Shown here in pieces: positions 47,710 to 60,265 of a stretch of 64,000 bases of DNA. Made by a program: the position numbers and the translations under genes. The stretch is from NCBI GenBank assembly GCA_030849465.1, contig JARVLF010000018.1:806001-870000 (forward strand), in the 5' to 3' direction. The notes under the pieces are model-generated. The model was given only the letters and a program-made list of their open reading frames with translations. It did not search any database and had not been told where the DNA came from. Source of the DNA: Moesziomyces globuligerus. Taxonomy: Eukaryota > Basidiomycota > Ustilaginomycetes > Ustilaginales > Ustilaginaceae. Position 1 is the stretch's first letter. Every line of letters begins with the position of its first letter.

Positions 47710-48624
47710 GTCCGGAGAGTCGTTACGACTTGCGAGCACTGGGCATGGCTGCGGTTGAATGCGCCGTTGGACAGGGATGCAAACGAGGTCGATCGAGGCC
47801 TAACCCAAGGGTCCTGTGCGAGGAGGCACGCCTCCACCTGGAGAAAAGACAAAGCCCGAGATCCGAGATGAATAAAGACGTTGTTAGGCCGCGACTTGCA
47901 GATGGGGCAATGTTTCTTTTTTTTTTTCTGCTACCGCGACTGGCACGGTGTGCTCGCTCCAGCTCGGCGAGCTGCGGGCGAGCTTCGAGCAGATGCGTTG
48001 CTGCTTTTATGGACCCTGACGGTCGTGGGCTGGCGTGATTTCAAACGAGCTGGCGTGCGGTCCCCCGCAGCATCACTCGGAGAACCCGCCTTATCGGCTG
48101 AGCACAGAGCACCATGGCATCTTTGCTCGAATGTACAGTACTGTATGCTGCGGCTGATCCGACTTGCTCAGTCATCACCGCGGGCTGAGCAGTGACGAGG
48201 GCGAGAGGGCAGCGGCGATGTGGGCATTTGTGGGCAATTCGACAACGGGCGCATGCAGCTTGGAATCGCGGGTGCGGGTGCCCCGCCAGAGTGGGAGCGC
48301 GTTCGCACCAATGACGAGCGAGGTTGGCTGTGCGTGTGAATGCCGCTCGGCGCAGTGTTGCACTCGGAGGTTCCGAGGTTGGCCTGCAGGTGCTATCAGA
48401 AATGCATTGCATGCGAAGCTTCGCGAGCTTCGCAAGCTTCGGAAGCTTCGGAAGCTTCGCAGGCTTCGCGCAATCTTCGGATTGCTTCCATCGAGCGCCG
48501 CTTGATCCGACTCGTCACGCTTTTGGACCTCGTCGGCGCCTCGTCCGTCGCCACCTCCATCGTCGCAACGCCTCCGTGATCGATCCTGGCTAGTCTGCAA
48601 CATCCGACTCACCCGGACCTCAAG
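47710..48624. promoter_or_regulatory. Divergent region, LRR gene and A-T-R-R reductase gene
   Basis: A 915-bp region between divergent start codons. It includes six tandem 9-bp AGCTTCGCA-type units at 48417-48470, each with an AAGCTT core, about 150-200 bp upstream of the reductase ATG. No other gene is supported. Confidence 0.5.
48417..48470. repeat. Six 9-bp AGCTTCG(C/G)(A/G) tandem units
   Basis: Six units differ only at the last two positions and the first base of the last unit. Each unit junction forms a short palindrome (GAAGCTTC). The position upstream of the reductase start makes a regulatory array possible, but it may be a neutral minisatellite. Confidence 0.85.
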
Positions 48625-51600
48625 ATGGTCGTGCTCGATACCACGCTCGATCTCGACGCGCTCTTCCGTCGCCAGGTCGAGGCGACGCCCCAAGCACTCG
48701 CCCTCGTCGACCCCTCGGCCACCTACACATATGCTCAGCTCGACGCAAAGGTCGACAGCCTCGCCTTCTTCTTTCGCTCACAACATGCCGTCCGTCGCGA
48801 CTCGCTCGTCGGCATCCTCATGGGCAGGGGCGCGGACTATGTCATCGCCTGCCTCGCCGCTCTTCGCGCAGGAGGCGCCTTCCTCGTCCTCGAACTCGCC
48901 TACCCGCTCGGCCTCCTCCACGACGTCATCAAAGATGCCCAGCCCGCCATCGTCGTCACCCAATCCCAGCACGCCAAGCTCATCCCCAAGTCCGTACCCA
49001 GCATCCACATCGATTCGCCAGACACCGCCGCAGCCATCTTCAACCAAGCCGCCCACCCCGACTCCGACTCGGCGCATCTCGACTCGCTCCCGCCTCTCCC
49101 CGAGACAACCGACCTCGAGCGTCTCGCCTTTGTCTCCTACTCGTCAGGCACCACGGGCAAGCCAAAGGGCATCGCCAACCCGCATCGAGCTCCCGTCTGC
49201 TCCTACCACCTCCGCTTCGCCGTCAACGACCTCCAGCCCGCAGACCGCGTCGCATGCAACGTCTACTTTGTCTGGGAGATGCTCCGTCCCCTCCTCCGCG
49301 GCGCAACCACCTACGCCGTCCCCGATCACGCCAGCTACGACCCCGTCAAGCTCGTAGAGCTCCTCGCAGATGAAAAGATCACCGAAACCCTCATGACGCC
49401 CACCCTCCTCGCCGCCGTCCTCGCCCGCCACCACAACCTCGGCGACAAGCTCCCCGCACTCCGCTCCCTCTGGCTCAACGGCGAGGTCGTCACCACCGAC
49501 CTCGCTCGAAGGGCCATCAAGGCGCTCCCAAACACCCGCCTCCTCAACTGCTACAGCGCAAGCGAAACTCACGAGGTCGCCTGCGGCGATCTCCGCCAGA
49601 TGCTCCCCACCCTCGCCCAAGACGCACCCTACTGCCCAGTCGGTCCCCCCATGGACCCCGAGCACACCTACATCCTCGCAGAGGACGGCAGCCCCGTGCA
49701 GCCAGGCGAGCCCGGCGAACTCTACGTCGGAGGCGGTCTTCTCGCCCGCGGCTACCTCAACCTCGTCGAGACCACCGCAAAGGCTTTCACGCCCGACACC
49801 CTCGCCTCCCAGCCCAACGCCCGCAAGTACAGAACCGGCGATCTCGCCAGGATCATTCCCGACACCGGCCTGCTCGAGATCACCGGCCGCGTGGGTGGCA
49901 TGATCAAGATCCGCGGCTACTCGATCGTCCCTGGCACCGTCGAGAAGGCCATCGTCGACAACTTTGACGTCAGCAACTGTGCCGTCGTCGCACACGGCGA
50001 GGGCCTCGAGCGCCAGCTCGTCGCCTACATTGTCCCGGACGAGGACGATCGCACCGGACGCACCGTGCTCACCATCGACGACAACGGTCACAGCCCCAGC
50101 GCACGCCAGGTCCTCGTCGCCCATCTCGCCCACTACATGATCCCCACCCTCTGGGTCGTCCTCCACTCCTTACCCACCCACGAGGTCTCGGGCAAGGTCG
50201 ACCTCAAGAACCTCCCCAACCCCAGGGCCGCCATCGCCGCCGCCAGCGGCACCAACTCGCGCGCCCGCAGCCCCGCTCCGGACGAGACGGTCAACCTCAA
50301 GTCGATCGCACAGCTCTGGGCGCTCTCGCTCAACACCAACCCCAACACTGTGCTCGAGGCCGGCAAGAACGCCAGCTTCTTTGACCTCGGCGGTCACTCG
50401 CTCCTGCTCGCCGACCTCGCCACGCGCATCTCAAAAACCCTCGGCGGCTTCTCGGTGCCCCTCGCCGAGCTCGCCGGCAACCCGACGCTCGCAGGCCACG
50501 TCCGTGTCACGCTCAACGCAAGAGACGGCTACAACGCCGCCGTTCAGGCCGACCTCCCCACCGTGCTGCGTGCCGACATCGCCCTGGCTCCCGAGTTCAA
50601 GCTCGCCTCGTCCGAGCCTCTCAAGGGCTGTCCTCTGAACGAGGCCAAGACCATCCTCCTCACCGGCGCCACCGGCTTCCTCGGCGGCTTCCTCCTCCAC
50701 GACCTCATCCAGAGCACCTCGGCGCGCATCGTCTGCCTCATCCGCTTCAACGCACCCTACCGCACCGATCGCTCCGCCGCCATGGCACGGCTGCGTCGCA
50801 ACATGCTCGACCTCGGCGTCTGGGACCACGCCATGCTCGACCGCATCGATGTGCTCCCGGCCAACCTCTCGCGCAACCGCCTCGGCCTCGTCCCCGAAGT
50901 CTACGACGACCTCGTCGAGCGCGTCGACGCCATCGTCCACTGCGCCGCCCAGGTCAACCTCGTCTATCCCTACGCCGCGCTGCGCGACCCCAACGTCGAG
51001 GGCACGCGCGAGGTGCTGCGTCTCGCCTTCCTCGCCAACGCCACGGTGCAGTACGTTTCGACCAACGGCGTGCTCCCACCCTCGCAGACCGGCTGGCCCG
51101 AATCAGCCATCATGCCGCTCGAGGACGTGCCCGACAAGCTGCTCGACGGCTACTGCCAGACCAAGTGGGTCGCCGAGCAACTTGTGCTCGAGGCGGCGCG
51201 CCGCGGCCTTCCCGCCAACGTCATCCGCATCGGCACGCTCAGCGGCCACTCGGAGACGGGCTCGACCAACACGTACGACCTCATCACGGCGCTCATCGTC
51301 GAGTCGGTCCACCTCGGCGTCGCGCCCGAGATCCCCGACTGGCACATTGAGATGAGCGCCGTCGACTACGTCAGCCGCGGCATCGTGGCCATCGGCAACC
51401 ACCTTGACCCGCAGCAGCGCATCTACCATCTCGGCGACAGCGAGCCCATCGACTGCCGTGTGCTCTTCCAGCACCTCGAGACGCTCGGCTACCCGACCCG
51501 GCGCACCAGCTGGAAGGCGTGGGTCGCGCTCTGGCACGAGTCGCGCGGCTCGGCCAAGGGCGGCGACCACGGCCTCACGGTCGACATCCTGCGCTCGGGC

Positions 51601-52587
51601 ATGCCGTCGGAGGAGTTTCTGCTCGGCATCATCGCGCTCAAGGACGACGCCACGCGCGCCGCGCTCGGCGACCTCGGCAGGCCCAAGGTGGACGCCAAGC
51701 TCCTCCAGACGTATGCGCGCCACTGGTATGCGCGCGGCTGGATGCAGCGCCAGCCCTCGAGTATTCCCGGCACGCCGACGGGCGCTGCCAACGGCGTCGA
51801 CGGCCTCGCACCCGCCTTCGACCCCAACTGGCCGCTGCGCGGCAAGGTTGCCGTGGTCACGGGCGCCTCGTCCGGCATCGGCGCTGCCGTCGCCCGCGCC
51901 CTCGTTCGCGAAGGAGCGCACGTTGCACTGGCGGCTCGCCGCGTCGAGGCGCTCGAGAAGCTGCGTGCGGAGCTGTCCGAGATCGCACGCGCGCACGGCG
52001 GACGCAGCCGGGTGCACGTGCACGCCACCGACGTGGTGGACCGGGCGCAGGTCGAATCGCTGATGGCGACGACGACCTCTACGCTCGGTGCGATCGACGC
52101 GATCGTCTCGTGCGCCGGCGTGATGTACTTTACCATGATGCACAACCTGCACCTCGACGAGTGGGAGCAGACGGTCGACGTCAACTGCAAGGGCCTGCTC
52201 AACGTGCTCTCGACCTCGCTGCCTCGCCTCCTGCCGCGCGGCACGGGTCACATTGTAGCCATCTCGTCCGATGCCGGCCGCAAGGTGTTTCCCGGGCTCG
52301 GCGTGTATAGCGCCTCCAAGTTCTTTGTCGAAGCGACGCTGCAGTCGCTCCGGCTCGAGACGGCGGGGACGGGTCTGCGCGTCACGTCGGTCCAGCCGGG
52401 CAACACGGCGACCGAGCTGCTCGGCATGAGCAAAGACCAGGAGGCCATCAAGAAGTACGGCGAACCCACGGGCGCCAAGATCCTCGACGCCTCGGACGTC
52501 GCCAATGCCATCGTCTATGCGCTCCGCCAGCCCGCGCACGTCGCCATGAACGAGATCCTCATCGAGCCGCGCGACGAACCCATCTGA
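48625..52587 (+). CDS. NRPS-like A-T-R1-R2 carboxylate reductase (ATRR / glycine-betaine-reductase type)
   Basis: A four-domain, 1320-residue reductase without a condensation domain. Adenylation domain (about 10-530): YSSGTTGKPKG at 172-182, NCYSASETHE, and the later KYRTGDLARI and GGMIKIRGYSI. Carrier domain: FFDLGGHSLLL with the pantetheine Ser592. R1 thioester reductase: LTGATGFLGG from about 678, catalytic YxxxK at 843-847. R2 short-chain dehydrogenase: VTGASSGIGAAVA near 1078 with YSASK at 1228-1232. This exact order matches the fungal ATRR enzyme described from Aspergillus nidulans. That enzyme activates glycine betaine and reduces it through the aldehyde to choline. The architecture supports a four-electron acid-to-alcohol reduction; the substrate is inferred from architecture only. 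Single exon. Confidence 0.9.
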   Translation: MVVLDTTLDLDALFRRQVEATPQALALVDPSATYTYAQLDAKVDSLAFFFRSQHAVRRDSLVGILMGRGADYVIACLAALRAGGAFLVLELAYPLGLLHDVIKDAQPAIVVTQSQHAKLIPKSVPSIHIDSPDTAAAIFNQAAHPDSDSAHLDSLPPLPETTDLERLAFVSYSSGTTGKPKGIANPHRAPVCSYHLRFAVNDLQPADRVACNVYFVWEMLRPLLRGATTYAVPDHASYDPVKLVELLADEKITETLMTPTLLAAVLARHHNLGDKLPALRSLWLNGEVVTTDLARRAIKALPNTRLLNCYSASETHEVACGDLRQMLPTLAQDAPYCPVGPPMDPEHTYILAEDGSPVQPGEPGELYVGGGLLARGYLNLVETTAKAFTPDTLASQPNARKYRTGDLARIIPDTGLLEITGRVGGMIKIRGYSIVPGTVEKAIVDNFDVSNCAVVAHGEGLERQLVAYIVPDEDDRTGRTVLTIDDNGHSPSARQVLVAHLAHYMIPTLWVVLHSLPTHEVSGKVDLKNLPNPRAAIAAASGTNSRARSPAPDETVNLKSIAQLWALSLNTNPNTVLEAGKNASFFDLGGHSLLLADLATRISKTLGGFSVPLAELAGNPTLAGHVRVTLNARDGYNAAVQADLPTVLRADIALAPEFKLASSEPLKGCPLNEAKTILLTGATGFLGGFLLHDLIQSTSARIVCLIRFNAPYRTDRSAAMARLRRNMLDLGVWDHAMLDRIDVLPANLSRNRLGLVPEVYDDLVERVDAIVHCAAQVNLVYPYAALRDPNVEGTREVLRLAFLANATVQYVSTNGVLPPSQTGWPESAIMPLEDVPDKLLDGYCQTKWVAEQLVLEAARRGLPANVIRIGTLSGHSETGSTNTYDLITALIVESVHLGVAPEIPDWHIEMSAVDYVSRGIVAIGNHLDPQQRIYHLGDSEPIDCRVLFQHLETLGYPTRRTSWKAWVALWHESRGSAKGGDHGLTVDILRSGMPSEEFLLGIIALKDDATRAALGDLGRPKVDAKLLQTYARHWYARGWMQRQPSSIPGTPTGAANGVDGLAPAFDPNWPLRGKVAVVTGASSGIGAAVARALVREGAHVALAARRVEALEKLRAELSEIARAHGGRSRVHVHATDVVDRAQVESLMATTTSTLGAIDAIVSCAGVMYFTMMHNLHLDEWEQTVDVNCKGLLNVLSTSLPRLLPRGTGHIVAISSDAGRKVFPGLGVYSASKFFVEATLQSLRLETAGTGLRVTSVQPGNTATELLGMSKDQEAIKKYGEPTGAKILDASDVANAIVYALRQPAHVAMNEILIEPRDEPI

Positions 52588-52779: not shown

Positions 52780-53790
52780 TTAGTGGGTTCCGCAGTGGAC
52801 GGTGCCGTCAGCGTGGGTGTGGCAGTCGCTGGAAGCAGCAGCGGAAGGGGTAGGAGCAGCGGCGGGGGCCTTGCTTGCGGAGCTAGGAGCAGGCTGGGTC
52901 TGAGCGGCAGCGGGGGCAGCGGAGGAGGAAGAGGCGTGGGAGGAGTGGTCGTGGTCGTCGTGCTTGATCTCGCCTACGCAGCCGTTCTTGGTGGTCTTGC
53001 GCGAGTAGACGTCGAGGGCAAAGTACTGGAGGCTGTGCTGGTTCGAGACGGCGGCGGTGGCGTTGGTGGCGGCGAGATCGAGGCAGTCGGCGTACGTGTC
53101 TGCGTAGTGGTGGATCTTGTCGTGGACAAAGTTGGGTACGTGGAAGGCGCGGTGGAGGAGATCGGCACCAAAGTAGAGCGAAGGGTTGTGCACGGCGAGC
53201 TGGAAGCCAAACGCACACAGCTGCTCGAGCGGTCGTCGAGTCTGGTACGACAACTCGCAGATCACCGTCTCCGAGGTAGCATTGTTGCCACGCCAGTGTC
53301 CGTTCCAGTCAGGGAATCGACAGTTACCATCCGGGTTATCACATCGCAACAAAGCATCCCCCTTATCACCCTACAATTCCCCAAAAGAAAGAACCAAAAC
53401 CTTTCATCAGTACACCAAACTACAACCCAATAACCCCAACACAAGTGAAGCATGAGGCGGTTGACTTACCGAGATGAGTTGTTCAAAGTATCCAATCACA
53501 TTGGCAGGATCCGCCTTGTCGCCAAAGTAGGTCACAAACAGAGGGTCCATAGGGTGGTTGACCAGATGGGCGATCGAGGTGGCGGCGAGCTTGCGCATGT
53601 CGTCGACGCCGCGCTGGATCTGGGCGCGCTGCGTGCCGTTGCACGACTCGTGGATGCGCCAGACGGCCGTCTCGCGCTGCTCCGAGACGGCGTTGACCGC
53701 ATCGCGCGCAGAGAGGAACGAGCCCAGCGGCGTTCCTGCCACCGCGCACACCAGCGCAGAGAGCGTCGCGAGAGAAGATCGGAGCTGCAT
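52780..53790 (-). CDS. PRA1: Zincophore of the Pra1/Asp f 2 family
   Basis: A secreted zinc-scavenging protein. Exon 1 (53790-53470) encodes a signal peptide (MQLRSSLATLSALVCAVAG) and the first part of the domain. A 99-nt intron (53371-53469, GTAAGTC...TTGTAG) precedes exon 2 (53370-52780). The family blocks are present: CDNPDGNC, NNATSETVICELSYQTRRPL, ADLLHRAFHVPNFVHDKIHH (metal-binding His) and NATAAVSNQHSLQYFALDVY. The C-terminus is Ala/Ser-rich and ends DCHTHADGTVHCGTH, a Cys/His motif. In all, 303 residues, close to Asp f 2 (310). It is divergent from the ZIP transporter gene, as in Candida PRA1-ZRT1 and Aspergillus aspf2-zrfC. A TATA-like CATAAAAGG lies about 90 bp upstream. Confidence 0.93.
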
Positions 53791-55107
53791 CGTTGAAGGA
53801 TGGTCCAAGGGCAAAGACGAACGGGAAGTCGAAGGTTGATTGGGGGATGAGGTTCGACGAATTGATGCAAGTCGTGTGCGCCTTTTATGGTCGAGCGCAA
53901 CCCGCTATGGTGCGTCCGAAACGAGCAACCGCCCCCCTTTCGCCCACCAGCTCGTTTGGAAGAGACGGGGTTCGGGTGCTGCGATTCGCCACATGCTCAC
54001 ATGCTACCTGTATCGACTTGGTCTTGGCACGCATGCTCGAAGAACAAGCTTTCGCGTGGGAGAGAGTATCACTCGCAAGGTTCTCGAACTTTTCACCACC
54101 GGCGAATCTTTGGCCCAACTTTCCGAGATGGCCGTAGGGCCGCGATGGCCGCAGGCGCCGAGAGATGAGGACCCTTGTAGATGTTTCCTGTCCTGTCAGG
54201 CACACCACGGCGAACTGCACCATGACCAACGGGCGGGACGGCGTCGAAACCTTCCAGACCTGGAAGAAGAACGGTCGAAAGAAAAAAAAAACTCGGGCAG
54301 GAAGTGCGTGCAGAACCGTGCAGGGACTGGGCAGCCCTTGACGGGAGAAAAGGGAGGAGAGGGGGGGGGGGGGTTGAGCGTCGGTCCGATGGCATCCGAA
54401 GCCTCGAGAGTGCGACGGAAGAGGCATCGCGGACTGCATCTGCACCTGCTTCTTTTTCTTGGCATTGTGACAAGCGGTCAAGCGGGCAAGATTCGGTTCA
54501 CACGTTCACACGTGGCGACCGCCACCAGCGACCCGCCCACACAGAGTACAGTAGCGCCCGTAGCGGGGGATGGATGCGAGCGATGTCGTGCAGCGCTCAA
54601 CGCCGGTTCTGGCAGTGTTCGACAGGCACGTCGAAAAACAAAAAAAGGGGAGTTGGGGCGCCCTCTGCACCGGTACTGGGCTGGGAAAAAAAGAAATCCA
54701 AAGATCAAATGTCTTGGCAACGACCCTGCTGGTTATCGCTCTGCATCGCAGCGCAACCGCCTCGTTCCTTGACAGGCCCCGCAGCAGGCGCACACGACAG
54801 CGACCTCGTCGGTCCCGCGCCACTGTCCAGTGCCAAGAACACCCTAAGCGTACGCTGTAGCAAGCGACGCTTCGGACCTCCTTTCGGATCTGGAAGGTGC
54901 TTGGCCGGTGGCGAAATCCTTGCTGCCAAGCAGCCAGGGTCCTTTGCGCCGAAGCCTCGCTGAAAGAGAAGGCAGAGAAAAAAAAAAGAAGGCGTTTGCC
55001 GGTGCCTGGAACAGGGCCGATGAAAGTACATATACCACGGCCATCGACGGCATTGAGAAGAAGATCGTCTCTGTATAGACGTCAGGATACCCTCAAGGCC
55101 TGCAAGA
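53791..55107. promoter_or_regulatory. Shared divergent promoter, zincophore and zinc transporter
   Basis: This 1.3-kb region separates the two start codons. TATA-like elements lie close to each gene: complement of 53881-53889 for the zincophore and ACATATAC near 55028-55035 for the transporter. One CAAGGT, the core of the Aspergillus ZafA site, occurs at 54075-54080. No full ACCTTNAAGGT palindrome was found. A G-run lies near 54360. Co-regulation by zinc is inferred from the arrangement. Confidence 0.5.
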
Positions 55108-56610
55108 ATGGTTCGCTTTGCCAGGATCGGTAGCTACGCTGCGGCGGTTTGCGCTGCTGCGCTCGTCTCGCACGCGGGCGCCCAGTCGGTGACGCTCGAT
55201 GTGACGGTTGCGGGCACGCCCACCACCACCGTCGTAGCTGCCTCGCCGACGGGCCGTGGGCTGTGCGAGTTCTACATCGACCACTGGGACTGCGACCCGA
55301 CCAAGCCAGAAGCCACTCCCGCCGCCTCGGCCGCCTCGAGCGCGGTGAGCGTCGAGCCCTCGCCTCTGGGGCAGAACTGCCATCTGCACGTCGACCACTG
55401 GCACTGCGATGGTCCCACGGCGACGGCGGCCAATGCCGCCGCCGAGCCGAGCCCTACCGGCCGCGGTGACTGCCACCTGCATGGCGATCACTGGCACTGC
55501 GAAGCGGATGGCGCCGAGTCGCACGAAGGCCACGATCACTCGGGCCACGACCACTCGGGTCACAGCCACGCCGGCCACTCGCACGCGGGTCACTCTCACG
55601 GTCCTTCTGCCGAGTACGGCTGTGGACTCGCTCCGCCCGAGCCGTACGACATGGGTCTTCACATCGCCACGGTCTTCATCCTGCTCGCTGCCTCGGCTGC
55701 CGGAACCTACCTGCCCATCCTGCTGCGTTCCAAGAACCCAGAGGGCAAGAAGTGGAGCAAGTGGGCCGACGAGCTCTTCTTCATCTGCCGTCACTTTGGT
55801 ACGGGTGTGATCCTCAGCACTGCCTTTGTCCACCTGCTGAGCCATGCGATCATCTACTGGTCCAACGAATGCATCGGCGAGCTCCTCTACGAAGCGCCCG
55901 CTCCGGCGATCGCCATGGCCGCAGTGTGGCTCGTGTGGATCATCGACTTTTTCCTCCTGCGCTCGCTGCGCAACCGCTCCAACTCGGGCTCGCTCTGCAG
56001 CCACAATCCGGAACCGCTCGAGCGCGAGGTGCAGACCAAGGGCGGCGAACTCACGCCTTCGCTCGAGGAGAACTCGATCGAGGCGGGCGACGATCGCTTT
56101 GGCGGACTCAGCTACGCCCAGGCCAAGGTCGCCGAGTGGGACGTCATGGCCATCGAAGCGGGCATCGTCTTCCACTCGGTGCTCATCGGTGTGACGCTGG
56201 GTGTGGCGACGGGCAGTGGATTCGTCGCGCTGCTCGTGGCCATCGTCTTCCACCAGATCTTCGAAGGCCTCGCGCTCGGTTCGAGGTTGTCGCTCCTCGT
56301 CTGGCGTAGCACGCGGACAAAGGCTCTGCTCGGAACGCTCTACGTCTTCACCACGCCCGTGGGTGTGGCCATCGGCATCGGCGTCCGCAAGTCGTTCAAC
56401 GGCAACAACTCGACCACGCTCGTCGTGCTCGGAACCCTCCACGCCATCAGCGCAGGCATCCTCCTCTACACCGCCCTCGTAGAGCTCCTCAGCGGCGACT
56501 TTATCCACAGCAAAACCATGCAGCGCGCCTCGCTCAAGCGCGCCGCCGCCGCCGTCACCGCCGTCACCATCGGCGCCGCCGCCATGTCCGTCCTCGCAAA
56601 GTGGGCCTAG
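55108..56610 (+). CDS. ZRT1: ZIP-family plasma-membrane zinc transporter with extracellular Cys/His repeats
   Basis: A 500-residue ZIP transporter for zinc uptake. A signal peptide (about 1-25) leads to an extracellular N-terminal region with three repeats of C-x-x-x-x-DHW-x-C: 53-62, 91-100 and 122-131. The last two read CHLHxDHWHC. A Gly/His/Ser run follows at about 138-165 (GHDHSGHDHSGHSHAGHSH). The transport core has the usual eight helices, with HFGTGVILSTAFVHLL in helix 2. The helix 4/5 metal site is FHSVLIGVTLGVA and IVFHQIFEGLALG. The variable loop between helices 3 and 4 is short. A TATA-like sequence lies about 75 bp upstream. The pairing with the zincophore supports high-affinity uptake under zinc limitation. 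Confidence 0.93.
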   Translation: MVRFARIGSYAAAVCAAALVSHAGAQSVTLDVTVAGTPTTTVVAASPTGRGLCEFYIDHWDCDPTKPEATPAASAASSAVSVEPSPLGQNCHLHVDHWHCDGPTATAANAAAEPSPTGRGDCHLHGDHWHCEADGAESHEGHDHSGHDHSGHSHAGHSHAGHSHGPSAEYGCGLAPPEPYDMGLHIATVFILLAASAAGTYLPILLRSKNPEGKKWSKWADELFFICRHFGTGVILSTAFVHLLSHAIIYWSNECIGELLYEAPAPAIAMAAVWLVWIIDFFLLRSLRNRSNSGSLCSHNPEPLEREVQTKGGELTPSLEENSIEAGDDRFGGLSYAQAKVAEWDVMAIEAGIVFHSVLIGVTLGVATGSGFVALLVAIVFHQIFEGLALGSRLSLLVWRSTRTKALLGTLYVFTTPVGVAIGIGVRKSFNGNNSTTLVVLGTLHAISAGILLYTALVELLSGDFIHSKTMQRASLKRAAAAVTAVTIGAAAMSVLAKWA

Positions 56611-58918: not shown

Positions 58919-59035
58919 ACCCATGCCCAACTCTGCTCGAAGCACTTGCAAATCCATCTCGCCCCTCGGCATCGCAAAGACTATCCCGCCGTCTAGCACC
59001 TCGCTCCTCGACTCCACTACTTTGATCCTTCCAAG

Positions 59036-60265
59036 ATGAGGCTGCCAGTCAATCTCTACCTGCTCGTGTCGGCAGCCTTTGCCGTGTTGCCGGGAATGGC
59101 GTTCCCCAACATGGGCGCGATGCTGAGGTCCGGACCCGACGGATCACCGTCGCACTTTGAGAAGCGACTCCTCTCTGCCGACCCGAACCAGCTGGGCAAC
59201 CTCTTCACCGACCTCAAGAGCAAGGTGGAGGAGCTCACCAAGGGAGCGCAGGTCAACAATGCGGGTGCGCTGCTCACCACCAAGATCACCGACATCACGC
59301 CGGACAAGATCTACTCGACCTTTGGCGTCCGACGCGACGGTGGCCTCCTGCCCCCCGCCGAAGACAAGGATCATCCCTGGCAGCCCCCTCCCAAGGGTGC
59401 CAAACGCGGTCCTTGCCCCGGACTCAACACCATCGCCAATCACGGCTACATCCCTCGCAGCGGTGTTCTCAACCCGATCGAGCTGCTCGTCGGAACGTTC
59501 AACGGCCTCAACCTCAGCCCGGATCTGGCTGCGATCCTTGCTGCCGTTTCGTTTGTCGGTGTAGGCGACCTGCTGCAGATGAAGCTCTCCATCGGCGATA
59601 GGTTCGGTCTCGGAGACGGCCTGAACCACCACGGCATCCTGGAGGGAGATGGCTCGGTGACCCGCAAGGACCACTTCTTTGGCAACAGTTGGGATGCAAA
59701 CCCGCAGCTGGTGGAGCAGTTTATCAACGAAACAGAGACCATCGGCAAGGGCAACGTCGACATCTTTACGCTCGCCAACGCGCGCTACCGTGCCTGGGAC
59801 GACTCGCGTCGAAACAACCCCAAGTTCGACTTTAACCCCTGGCGGATGCTCGTCGCCTACGGCGAGAGCGGCTTTGTCCACGAGGCGCTGCGCGGTTCGT
59901 CGGTCAAGTTCACCCCAGACATGATCCGGAGCTGGTTCCTGCACGAGCGTTTCCCGCAGGGCTGGAGCAAGCGCATCGTGCCCATCTCGACGCCCGAGAT
60001 CCTCGCCTGGGCAGGCATCATCGAGGTCGTCAAGCCCACCATCCCCGGCTGGAGCGTGGGCAAGGGCGCCTTCATCCCCCTGCCCACCACCGACGCCGCC
60101 TATCAGCAGCTCGCCTCGCTCATCGACCCCAAGACGACCGGCGCCACGCTCGGCAACCTCGTCTGCGCTGCTGGCAGGGCTGTCTCCGGCTTCTTCCCCT
60201 CTCAGATCGTCAACCTCCTCGGCGTCGGTGCCATCAACGGCCTCGACTCTGCCTTTACCTGCTAA
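59036..60265 (+). CDS. Secreted heme-thiolate peroxidase (unspecific peroxygenase/chloroperoxidase family)
   Basis: An extracellular heme enzyme that uses hydrogen peroxide to oxygenate or halogenate organic substrates. A signal peptide (about residues 1-22) is followed by a propeptide-like segment ending near EKR, a possible Kex2 site. The proximal heme ligand is Cys127 in GPCPGLNTIANHGYIP. The acid-base motif is EGDGSVTRKDHFFG with Glu203, the EGD form of peroxygenases rather than the EHD form of chloroperoxidase. The protein has 409 residues, which places it with the long type. Single exon. The start sits directly after CCAAG. Confidence 0.9.
   Translation: MRLPVNLYLLVSAAFAVLPGMAFPNMGAMLRSGPDGSPSHFEKRLLSADPNQLGNLFTDLKSKVEELTKGAQVNNAGALLTTKITDITPDKIYSTFGVRRDGGLLPPAEDKDHPWQPPPKGAKRGPCPGLNTIANHGYIPRSGVLNPIELLVGTFNGLNLSPDLAAILAAVSFVGVGDLLQMKLSIGDRFGLGDGLNHHGILEGDGSVTRKDHFFGNSWDANPQLVEQFINETETIGKGNVDIFTLANARYRAWDDSRRNNPKFDFNPWRMLVAYGESGFVHEALRGSSVKFTPDMIRSWFLHERFPQGWSKRIVPISTPEILAWAGIIEVVKPTIPGWSVGKGAFIPLPTTDAAYQQLASLIDPKTTGATLGNLVCAAGRAVSGFFPSQIVNLLGVGAINGLDSAFTC

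What the first reader, a model, noticed from the sequence alone, without database searches (positions are those of the whole stretch)
52780..56610. Zincophore and ZIP transporter in one divergent locus, sharing a Cys/His motif
A Pra1/Asp f 2-family secreted protein and a ZIP transporter are divergently transcribed, as in ascomycete PRA1-ZRT1 and aspf2-zrfC. Beyond synteny, the transporter has three tandem extracellular repeats of the form C-x4-DHW-x-C, two of them CHLHxDHWHC. The zincophore ends in a DCHTHADGTVHC tail. Matching Cys/His motifs on the scavenger and on the outside of its transporter suggest a docking or zinc hand-over module.
Basis: partly seen in the sequence, partly recalled or inferred. 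Interest (0 to 1): 0.75.

Follow-up and report, generated by a model that had tools for sequence, protein, structure and literature searches.

The report
Zincophore–transporter locus sharing a zinc module
A smut-like fungus keeps a secreted zinc-scavenging protein next to the zinc transporter that should receive its cargo, a known gene pair, and comparison with relatives shows that the small Cys/His zinc clip on the transporter has in some fungi turned up on the scavenger too.

Summary
At 52780-56610 a single-intron Pra1/Asp f 2-type zincophore (minus) and a ZIP transporter (plus) diverge from a 1317-bp promoter. The ZIP has three C-x4-DHW-x-C modules; the zincophore ends in CHTHADGTVHC; both are far beyond chance. 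The locus type is published, including in Ustilago maydis, as are zinc-binding Cys/His peptides on both ascomycete partners and a proposed hand-over. New here is the comparison. (1) Transporter-type modules occur on zincophores: three carry one with transporter-like flanks (11-13 of 14 residues), and one ascomycete clade has one in place of the usual tail. (2) Module number and sequence do not visibly co-vary with the tail, and C. parapsilosis, reported to lack PRA1, keeps five modules, so a dedicated docking lock is unlikely. (3) AlphaFold2 draws each transporter module as a beta-hairpin; by that register His falls on one face (529 of 920 positions) and never on the Cys face (0 of 460). That raises a question the Aspf2 peptide paper does not take up: is the Cys pair a disulfide rather than a zinc ligand? 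Best reading: a flexible zinc-collecting antenna fed by, but not dependent on, the zincophore. Ordinary locus, interesting module.

The parts
53470..53790 (-). Zincophore (Pra1/Asp f 2 family) exon 1, ATG at 53790, signal-peptide-like N-terminus
   Evidence: HRXXH Pfam hit E 1.8e-11; signal peptide judged by eye, no predictor run
53371..53469 (-). Intron, 99 bp, GTAAGT...GTAG
   Evidence: joining the exons gives one 303-aa frame that aligns with Pra1 on both sides of the joint
52780..53370 (-). Zincophore exon 2 including the stop; HRXXH core, His-rich HDDHDHSSH, low-complexity linker, tail
   Evidence: HRXXH E 1.6e-54; PDB 9n47 E 7.4e-55
53107..53154 (-). Zinc-binding His triad HRAFH-x10-H, aa 180-195 (counterparts of Pra1 H178, H182, H193)
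   Evidence: alignment to 9n47; coordinates
52792..52824 (-). C-terminal clamp CHTHADGTVHC (C-x9-C), aa 290-300
   Evidence: the 179 C-x9-C spans found in the last 130 aa of 201 relatives all have H2, H4, G7 and H10
53791..55107 (.). Shared divergent promoter, 1317 bp between start codons
54071..54085 (+). ZafA-type zinc-response-like site ACTCGCAAGGTTCTC (2 substitutions outside the core)
   Evidence: consensus from PMC6070888 (passages)
54719..54733 (-). Zinc-response-like site ACCAGCAGGGTCGTT (2 substitutions)
54930..54944 (+). Zinc-response-like site GCAGCCAGGGTCCTT (1 substitution)
55108..56610 (+). ZIP zinc transporter, 500 aa, one open frame as read
   Evidence: BbZIP-like membrane part
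55264..55293 (+). Module 1, CEFYIDHWDC (aa 53-62); predicted hairpin 52-56/59-63; one His only
55378..55407 (+). Module 2, CHLHVDHWHC (aa 91-100); predicted hairpin 91-94/97-100
55471..55500 (+). Module 3, CHLHGDHWHC (aa 122-131); predicted hairpin 121-125/128-132
55522..55599 (+). His-rich tether, aa 139-164, 11 His, between module 3 and the first membrane helix
   Evidence: pLDDT mostly under 50

Best explanation
This is a fungal PRA1-ZRT1 zincophore uptake locus. The zincophore is secreted, takes zinc on its HRXXH His triad and on a C-terminal Cys/His clamp, and returns to the cell. The transporter's N-terminal ectodomain is a flexible antenna: three Cys-closed beta-hairpin modules on loose linkers, then a run of 11 His leading to the ZIP channel. 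Zinc passes by ligand exchange from any donor, the zincophore tail among them, to the transporter's modules, then to the His run and the channel. The two partners use the same kind of clamp because both need a fast-exchanging His site, not because the modules are lock and key. Shown here: gene structure, families, modules, their retention, their occurrence on both partners in other fungi, predicted hairpins. Inferred: zinc binding by these modules, direction of transfer, extracellular topology. Inferred and open: that in the oxidising outside the Cys pair is a disulfide and only the His face binds zinc.
For: Families and locus. The genome search found one HRXXH gene (two exon hits) and three ZIP hits; the ZIP paralogue L001 has no ectodomain modules, and an ectodomain query found only itself at a meaningful score (second hit E 0.099). 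Retention: 18 of 19 matched pairs; 90 of the 120 listed ZIP relatives have at least one clamp. Same kind of module on both partners elsewhere: 22 of 201 zincophores carry a DH[WY] module; in P0204, P0233 and P0248 13, 13 and 11 of 14 flanking residues match a transporter module, reached by 0, 0 and 1 of 1000 shuffles, against a maximum of 6 for 179 ordinary tail flanks. Hairpins. Face rule, spans not chosen for His: 303 of 616 and 0 of 308 (ZIP C-x8-C), 192 of 256 and 0 of 128 (zincophore C-x9-C), 34 of 48 and 0 of 24 (zincophore C-x8-C). Published: the Zrt1 site binds Zn more stably than the Pra1 site (passage); in virulence, ZrfC without its N-terminus only equals ZrfA and ZrfB together (passage); Zrt1 is essential for soluble Pra1 to bind the C. 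albicans surface (abstract).
Against: No call measures zinc binding, expression or interaction for this pair. Module 1 has one His, so it may not be a zinc site. AlphaFold2 knows no metal; module blocks have pLDDT 75-84 in the ZIP and 46-54 in the one zincophore modelled, and I had no coordinates, so the faces are inferred from the strand register. Modules of related proteins are not independent, so 0 of 460 is not a probability. Solution work on the Aspf2 tail reports two thiolates and two imidazoles, and the Zrt1 peptide one thiolate and three imidazoles, against a disulfide. In C. albicans the triad is shown to be essential; I saw no test of the tail (passages). 30 of 120 listed ZIPs have no clamp: 22 have fewer than 50 residues ahead of the first membrane helix and look cut, two could not be placed, but six have 65-142 residues there, among them P0115 and P0118, which have no Cys pair at all.
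Confidence: 0.55

Rival explanations
1. Docking lock: a zinc ion shared between a zincophore tail and a transporter module holds the two proteins together (zinc-bridged hairpin pair), and the modules exist for that.
For: Same kind of module on both partners, and a transporter-like unit with its flanks on three zincophores; Zrt1 is required for Pra1 to bind the C. albicans surface (abstract).
Against: No visible co-variation of number or sequence; C. parapsilosis, reported without PRA1, keeps five modules.
Confidence: 0.2
2. Zincophore-independent antenna: the transporter modules collect free or weakly bound zinc and the zincophore delivers by its triad alone; the likeness of the tail is parallel evolution.
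For: PRA1-less C. parapsilosis; the C. albicans triad is essential (passages); the modules of the 19 DH-only zincophores share no more flank with transporter modules than chance (3-5 of 14).
Against: The tail is frequent in the fetched zincophores (160 of 201 with the CHxHxxGxxHC form) and three carry a transporter-like unit with flanks.
Confidence: 0.18
3. The modules are disulfide-closed structural knobs that bind cell wall or serve as a zinc sensor for turnover of the transporter, not a path for zinc.
For: Module 1 has one His; Cys pair and hydrophobic residues share an inferred face.
Against: The His face (303 of 616 positions) and the adjoining His run would be unexplained; a published Zrt1 module peptide binds zinc (passages).
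Confidence: 0.06
4. Chance likeness of Cys/His-rich stretches.
For: Ten-residue motifs are short.
Against: Shuffles and six-frame control; H2, H4, G7, H10 in 179 of 179 tail spans.
Confidence: 0.01

Closest known systems
PRA1-ZRT1 zincophore locus of Candida albicans, also reported in Ustilago maydis and Sporisorium reilianum (Citiulo 2012, PMC3386192, abstract and passages)
   Same: Divergent pair, HRXXH zincophore with His triad, ZIP transporter, C-terminal CHTHxxGxxHC
   Different: Transporter modules are C-x4-DHW-x-C instead of CHFHAGVEHC
aspf2-zrfC of Aspergillus fumigatus (PMC9780748, PMC4343018, PMC6070888; passages)
   Same: Shared promoter, ZrfC ectodomain with four putative zinc-binding motifs, zinc-binding tail peptide
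   Different: Module sequence; zinc regulation here only suggested by three degenerate sites
PRA1-ZRT1 cluster of Cryptococcus and Kwoniella (PMC11185503, passages)
   Same: Basidiomycete ZIPs with CxLHxDHYHC modules
   Different: One Cryptococcus zincophore (P0204) carries a transporter-type module as well; the window's does not
Beauveria bassiana BBA_01910, secreted 209-aa protein with two CEPHEDHWHCPAGVPQP motifs (PMC12099005, passages)
   Same: DHWHC module; that paper's AlphaFold3 model gives zinc at six His, which would fit three per motif (my inference)
   Different: Described as a stand-alone protein, not a zincophore or ZIP

Membership tests
PRA1/Asp f 2 zincophore | HRXXH-family domain | tested here: met
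   Pfam PF13933 on both exons
PRA1/Asp f 2 zincophore | His triad H178/H182/H193 | tested here: met
   Aligned with 9n47; pattern found
PRA1/Asp f 2 zincophore | C-terminal CHTHxxGxxHC | tested here: met
   CHTHADGTVHC
PRA1/Asp f 2 zincophore | Secreted and binds zinc | not testable with these tools
   Signal-like N-terminus seen only by eye
PRA1-ZRT1 locus | Divergent neighbour of a ZIP gene | tested here: met
   1317 bp between start codons
PRA1-ZRT1 locus | ZIP of the Zrt1 type, not Zrt2 | tested here: inconclusive
   In a tree of 122 ZIPs the window ZIP lies among the ZIPs of 18 of the 19 matched pairs and apart from L001, whose long branch is unsure. Against: no reference Zrt2 was in the tree, and source names for its smut relatives P0007, P0010 and P0014 say ZRT2, for P0011, P0026 and P0027 Zrt1
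PRA1-ZRT1 locus | Zinc-limited co-expression | tested here: inconclusive
   Three ZR-like sites against 0.27 in shuffles, 1 of 500 as many; at the stricter cut-off one site, 32 of 500; ascomycete consensus used
PRA1-ZRT1 locus | Zincophore binds the transporter | not testable with these tools
   No interaction data
ZIP (SLC39) transporter | Zip domain and ZIP-like membrane fold | tested here: met
   Pfam E 2e-47; Foldseek to BbZIP 6pgi, 7z6m, 5tsa, E 2.2e-4 to 2.7e-4; TIGR00820 just under its cut-off, 222.1 against 231.15; no PDB hit by sequence
Zincophore with transporter-type module | DH[WY] C-x8-C module in the zincophore tail | tested here: not met
   The window zincophore has only the C-x9-C tail

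The most novel reading that the evidence does not exclude
A Cys-closed, His-faced beta-hairpin of 10-11 residues is a mobile extracellular zinc-relay module of Dikarya. It sits as an array on the receiving transporter, as a single tip on the zincophore, and as a stand-alone secreted repeat, and has been copied from transporter to zincophore at least once. In the secreted proteins the Cys pair is a disulfide and zinc is held by the His face alone, so the published two-thiolate coordination of the Aspf2 peptide would not be the state in nature.
Probability: 0.3. Interest if true: 0.7.

Novelty: new variant of a known kind. Interest (0 to 1): 0.45.

Why it matters
How Pra1-type zincophores dock on and unload to their transporter is open: the tail is unresolved in the 2025 cryo-EM structures and its relation to the triad is said to remain to be defined (passages). 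A module that occurs on both partners, has a predicted geometry, and is kept in one species reported to lack the zincophore makes the question testable with short peptides and a laboratory yeast. The redox question bears on the zinc constants published for the Aspf2 tail.

Tried and rejected
Chance likeness: rejected by shuffles and the six-frame control. Co-variation of tail and modules: looked for by eye in 19 matched pairs and not seen; no statistic was made. Other carriers of the ectodomain in the same genome: none found by homology; short lone modules could be missed. The Pfam library at hand gave no hit for the ectodomain; PF28209, which the protein database lists on many of these ZIPs and on one zincophore (P0267), is named in no call, so I do not know its description. 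Flank homology between the modules of the 19 DH-only zincophores and transporter modules: 3-5 of 14, no better than shuffles, so that replacement is either in-place change or comes from a stand-alone family such as BBA_01910; not decided. ZIP partners of those zincophores were not among the 120 listed, so that pairing is untested. PDB sequence search with the ZIP: no hit. The yeast ZRE consensus gave two sites with two mismatches in the promoter, 17 in the window. Print searches; the letters DHWHC, DHYHC, CHTHADG, HGDHW gave 4 papers, of which two hold the motifs. Any statement of novelty rests on these open-licence papers only; of the papers read I saw passages, and of PMC3386192 and PMC12663325 parts of the abstract too. 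Loboda and Rowinska-Zyrek and Amich 2014 were seen only as cited by others.
Full report
What is there. The window lies in an 18.5-Mb, 24-contig genome. On the minus strand a two-exon gene (53790-53470, 53370-52780) encodes a 303-aa protein of the HRXXH family. It aligns over residues 45-300 with C. albicans Pra1 of PDB 9n47 at E 7.4e-55, with the zinc triad in register. On the plus strand 55108-56610 encodes a 500-aa ZIP transporter whose membrane part models like BbZIP. The start codons are 1317 bp apart. The genome search found one HRXXH gene (two exon hits) and three ZIP hits; one of the others, L001, has no ectodomain modules.

The motifs. The ZIP ectodomain has CEFYIDHWDC, CHLHVDHWHC and CHLHGDHWHC at residues 53, 91 and 122, then 11 His in 26 residues before the first membrane helix. 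The zincophore ends in CHTHADGTVHC. In the six-frame translation of the window (127,996 codons) these are the only matches to the two patterns, and 200,000 shuffles of the ectodomain gave one or more modules in 9 and two or more in none.

Relatives. Of 325 ZIP hits the best 120 are listed. With the window ZIP and L001 added, 56 of 122 have a DH-type module, 35 only the CHxH type and 31 neither. The 35 form one clade, whose named members are ascomycetes, and the DH type sits in the other, whose named members are basidiomycetes (taxonomy of the names recalled). Of the 30 listed ZIPs with neither, 22 have fewer than 50 residues ahead of the first membrane helix and look cut, two could not be placed, and six have 65-142: P0115 and P0118 have no Cys pair there, P0065 has CVVHGGHTHGDC, P0101 CTWDHGHMDC. 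For the zincophore 120 of 585 hits and 120 of 298 were listed, 201 different proteins in all. Of these 160 have CHxHxxGxxHC: 138 once, 19 twice, 3 together with a DH-type module; 19 have only a DH-type module, 22 neither. Three of the 22 end just at C-x-PHxDHW and are probably cut models. No listed ZIP carries the 11-residue tail form (0 of 120).

The module on zincophores. P0204 (Cryptococcus depauperatus), P0248 (Kockovaella imperatae) and P0233 (unnamed) have a DHYHC module before the ordinary tail. Ten residues before and four after it match a transporter module at 13, 11 and 13 of 14 positions; shuffled flanks reach this in 0, 1 and 0 of 1000; the flanks of 179 ordinary tails reach 6 at most. 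Example: VPPPPAESTG-CTLHGDHYHC-TGPA in P0204 and VPPPPAESTG-CKLHEDHYHC-EGPA in the ZIP P0039 of the same species, other record. The genes are divergent in the published cluster, so a fused gene model is an unlikely source; the genomes themselves were not open to me. That the copy went from transporter to zincophore is inferred: the unit is repeated in the ZIPs and found in three of the zincophores. The second group is one clade of 22 zincophores (19 DH only, 3 cut; support 92, the inner 21 rows 100), nested among ordinary tails. Nine of the 19 bear names (Bipolaris, Didymella, Ascochyta, Boeremia and others; that these are Pleosporales is recalled). Their flanks do not match transporter modules (3-5 of 14), but the downstream PPGVPxP recalls BBA_01910 of Beauveria (passages).

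No visible co-variation. Equal contig lengths in the listings, in several cases with consecutive locus tags, let me match 19 ZIP-zincophore pairs by hand: ten on the smut side, nine others. In 18 both have clamps; the exception, P0074, is a cut model. In the smut relatives ZIP module number runs from 1 to 3 (the single one in P0017, a 403-aa model that may be incomplete), while 14 zincophores of that clade show four close tail variants. C. parapsilosis is reported to keep ZRT101 and to lack PRA1 (PMC9277298, passages); the ZIP P0106, named C. parapsilosis, has five modules, as has the unnamed near-copy P0110 (I did not match P0106 to the gene of that paper). This weakens a lock-and-key reading and favours an antenna.

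Geometry. AlphaFold2 on 60 aligned ZIPs gives each module as a hairpin with its two-residue turn at module positions 5-6; module blocks have pLDDT 75-84, the linkers dip under 50 (72-81, 103-112), as does most of the His run; a further strand pair, 29-34/37-42, holds no module. A second model, of P0204 on 19 zincophores, draws strands 274-277/280-283 and 308-310/316-318, at pLDDT 46-54. I had no coordinates, so the faces follow from the strand register: both Cys with positions 3 and 8 on one side, positions 2, 4, 7 and 9 on the other; for the 11-residue tail 3 and 9 against 2, 4, 8 and 10. Over distinct spans taken without regard to His, turns left out, His fills 303 of 616 positions on the second face and 0 of 308 on the first in ZIPs, 192 of 256 and 0 of 128 in zincophore C-x9-C, 34 of 48 and 0 of 24 in zincophore C-x8-C. 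Related proteins are not independent samples. The published Pra1 ligands, His288, 290, 292 and 298, are tail positions 2, 4 and 10 plus one upstream by the numbering, which suits the His face. Against it, the Aspf2 tail peptide, with two titratable thiols, uses two thiolates and two imidazoles, and the Zrt1 peptide one thiolate and three imidazoles. The words disulfide, TCEP, reducing and oxid do not occur in the main text of the Aspf2 paper.

Regulation. With the A. fumigatus ZafA consensus (PMC6070888, passages), three sites with the exact core and at most two other substitutions lie in the shared promoter, against a shuffle mean of 0.27 (1 of 500 as many); at one substitution, one site, 32 of 500. 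Suggestive only.

Standing. The locus is a member of a published kind; Citiulo 2012 already names U. maydis and S. reilianum, and tail retention in basidiomycetes is in print. The DHW form of the transporter modules, transporter-type modules on zincophores and the face rule were not found in the searches listed under Tried and rejected. I therefore file it as a new variant of a known kind.

Noticed in passing
48580-52587 (+): 1335-aa open frame with AMP-binding, PP-binding, NAD_binding_4 and a C-terminal short-chain dehydrogenase; the order recalls fungal ATRR glycine betaine reductases (recalled, not tested).
   Followed up: no
58997-60265 (+): Peroxidase_2 protein with a signal-like start (by eye), E 1.4e-49.
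   Followed up: no
P0260, P0278, P0298; P0275, P0284, P0289: Zincophore models that stop inside the module (after DHW) or just before where relatives have the tail: the clamp may lie on or across a small last exon in these fungi.
   Followed up: no
P0036, P0065, P0066, P0081: Another shared ectodomain motif, C-[IV]-[IV]-H-x-G-H-T-H-G-D-C, in these four basidiomycete ZIPs, also in P0065, which lacks the DH type.
   Followed up: no
P0162: A zincophore labelled Adiantum nelumboides (a fern, recalled) groups with P0168 and P0234 of Meira miltonrushii; probably fungal contamination of a plant assembly.
   Followed up: no
P0208, P0219, P0241-P0244, P0252: Kwoniella zincophores with two ordinary tail motifs; in P0208 and P0219 the inner one aligns with the transporter-type module of P0204.
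   Followed up: partly
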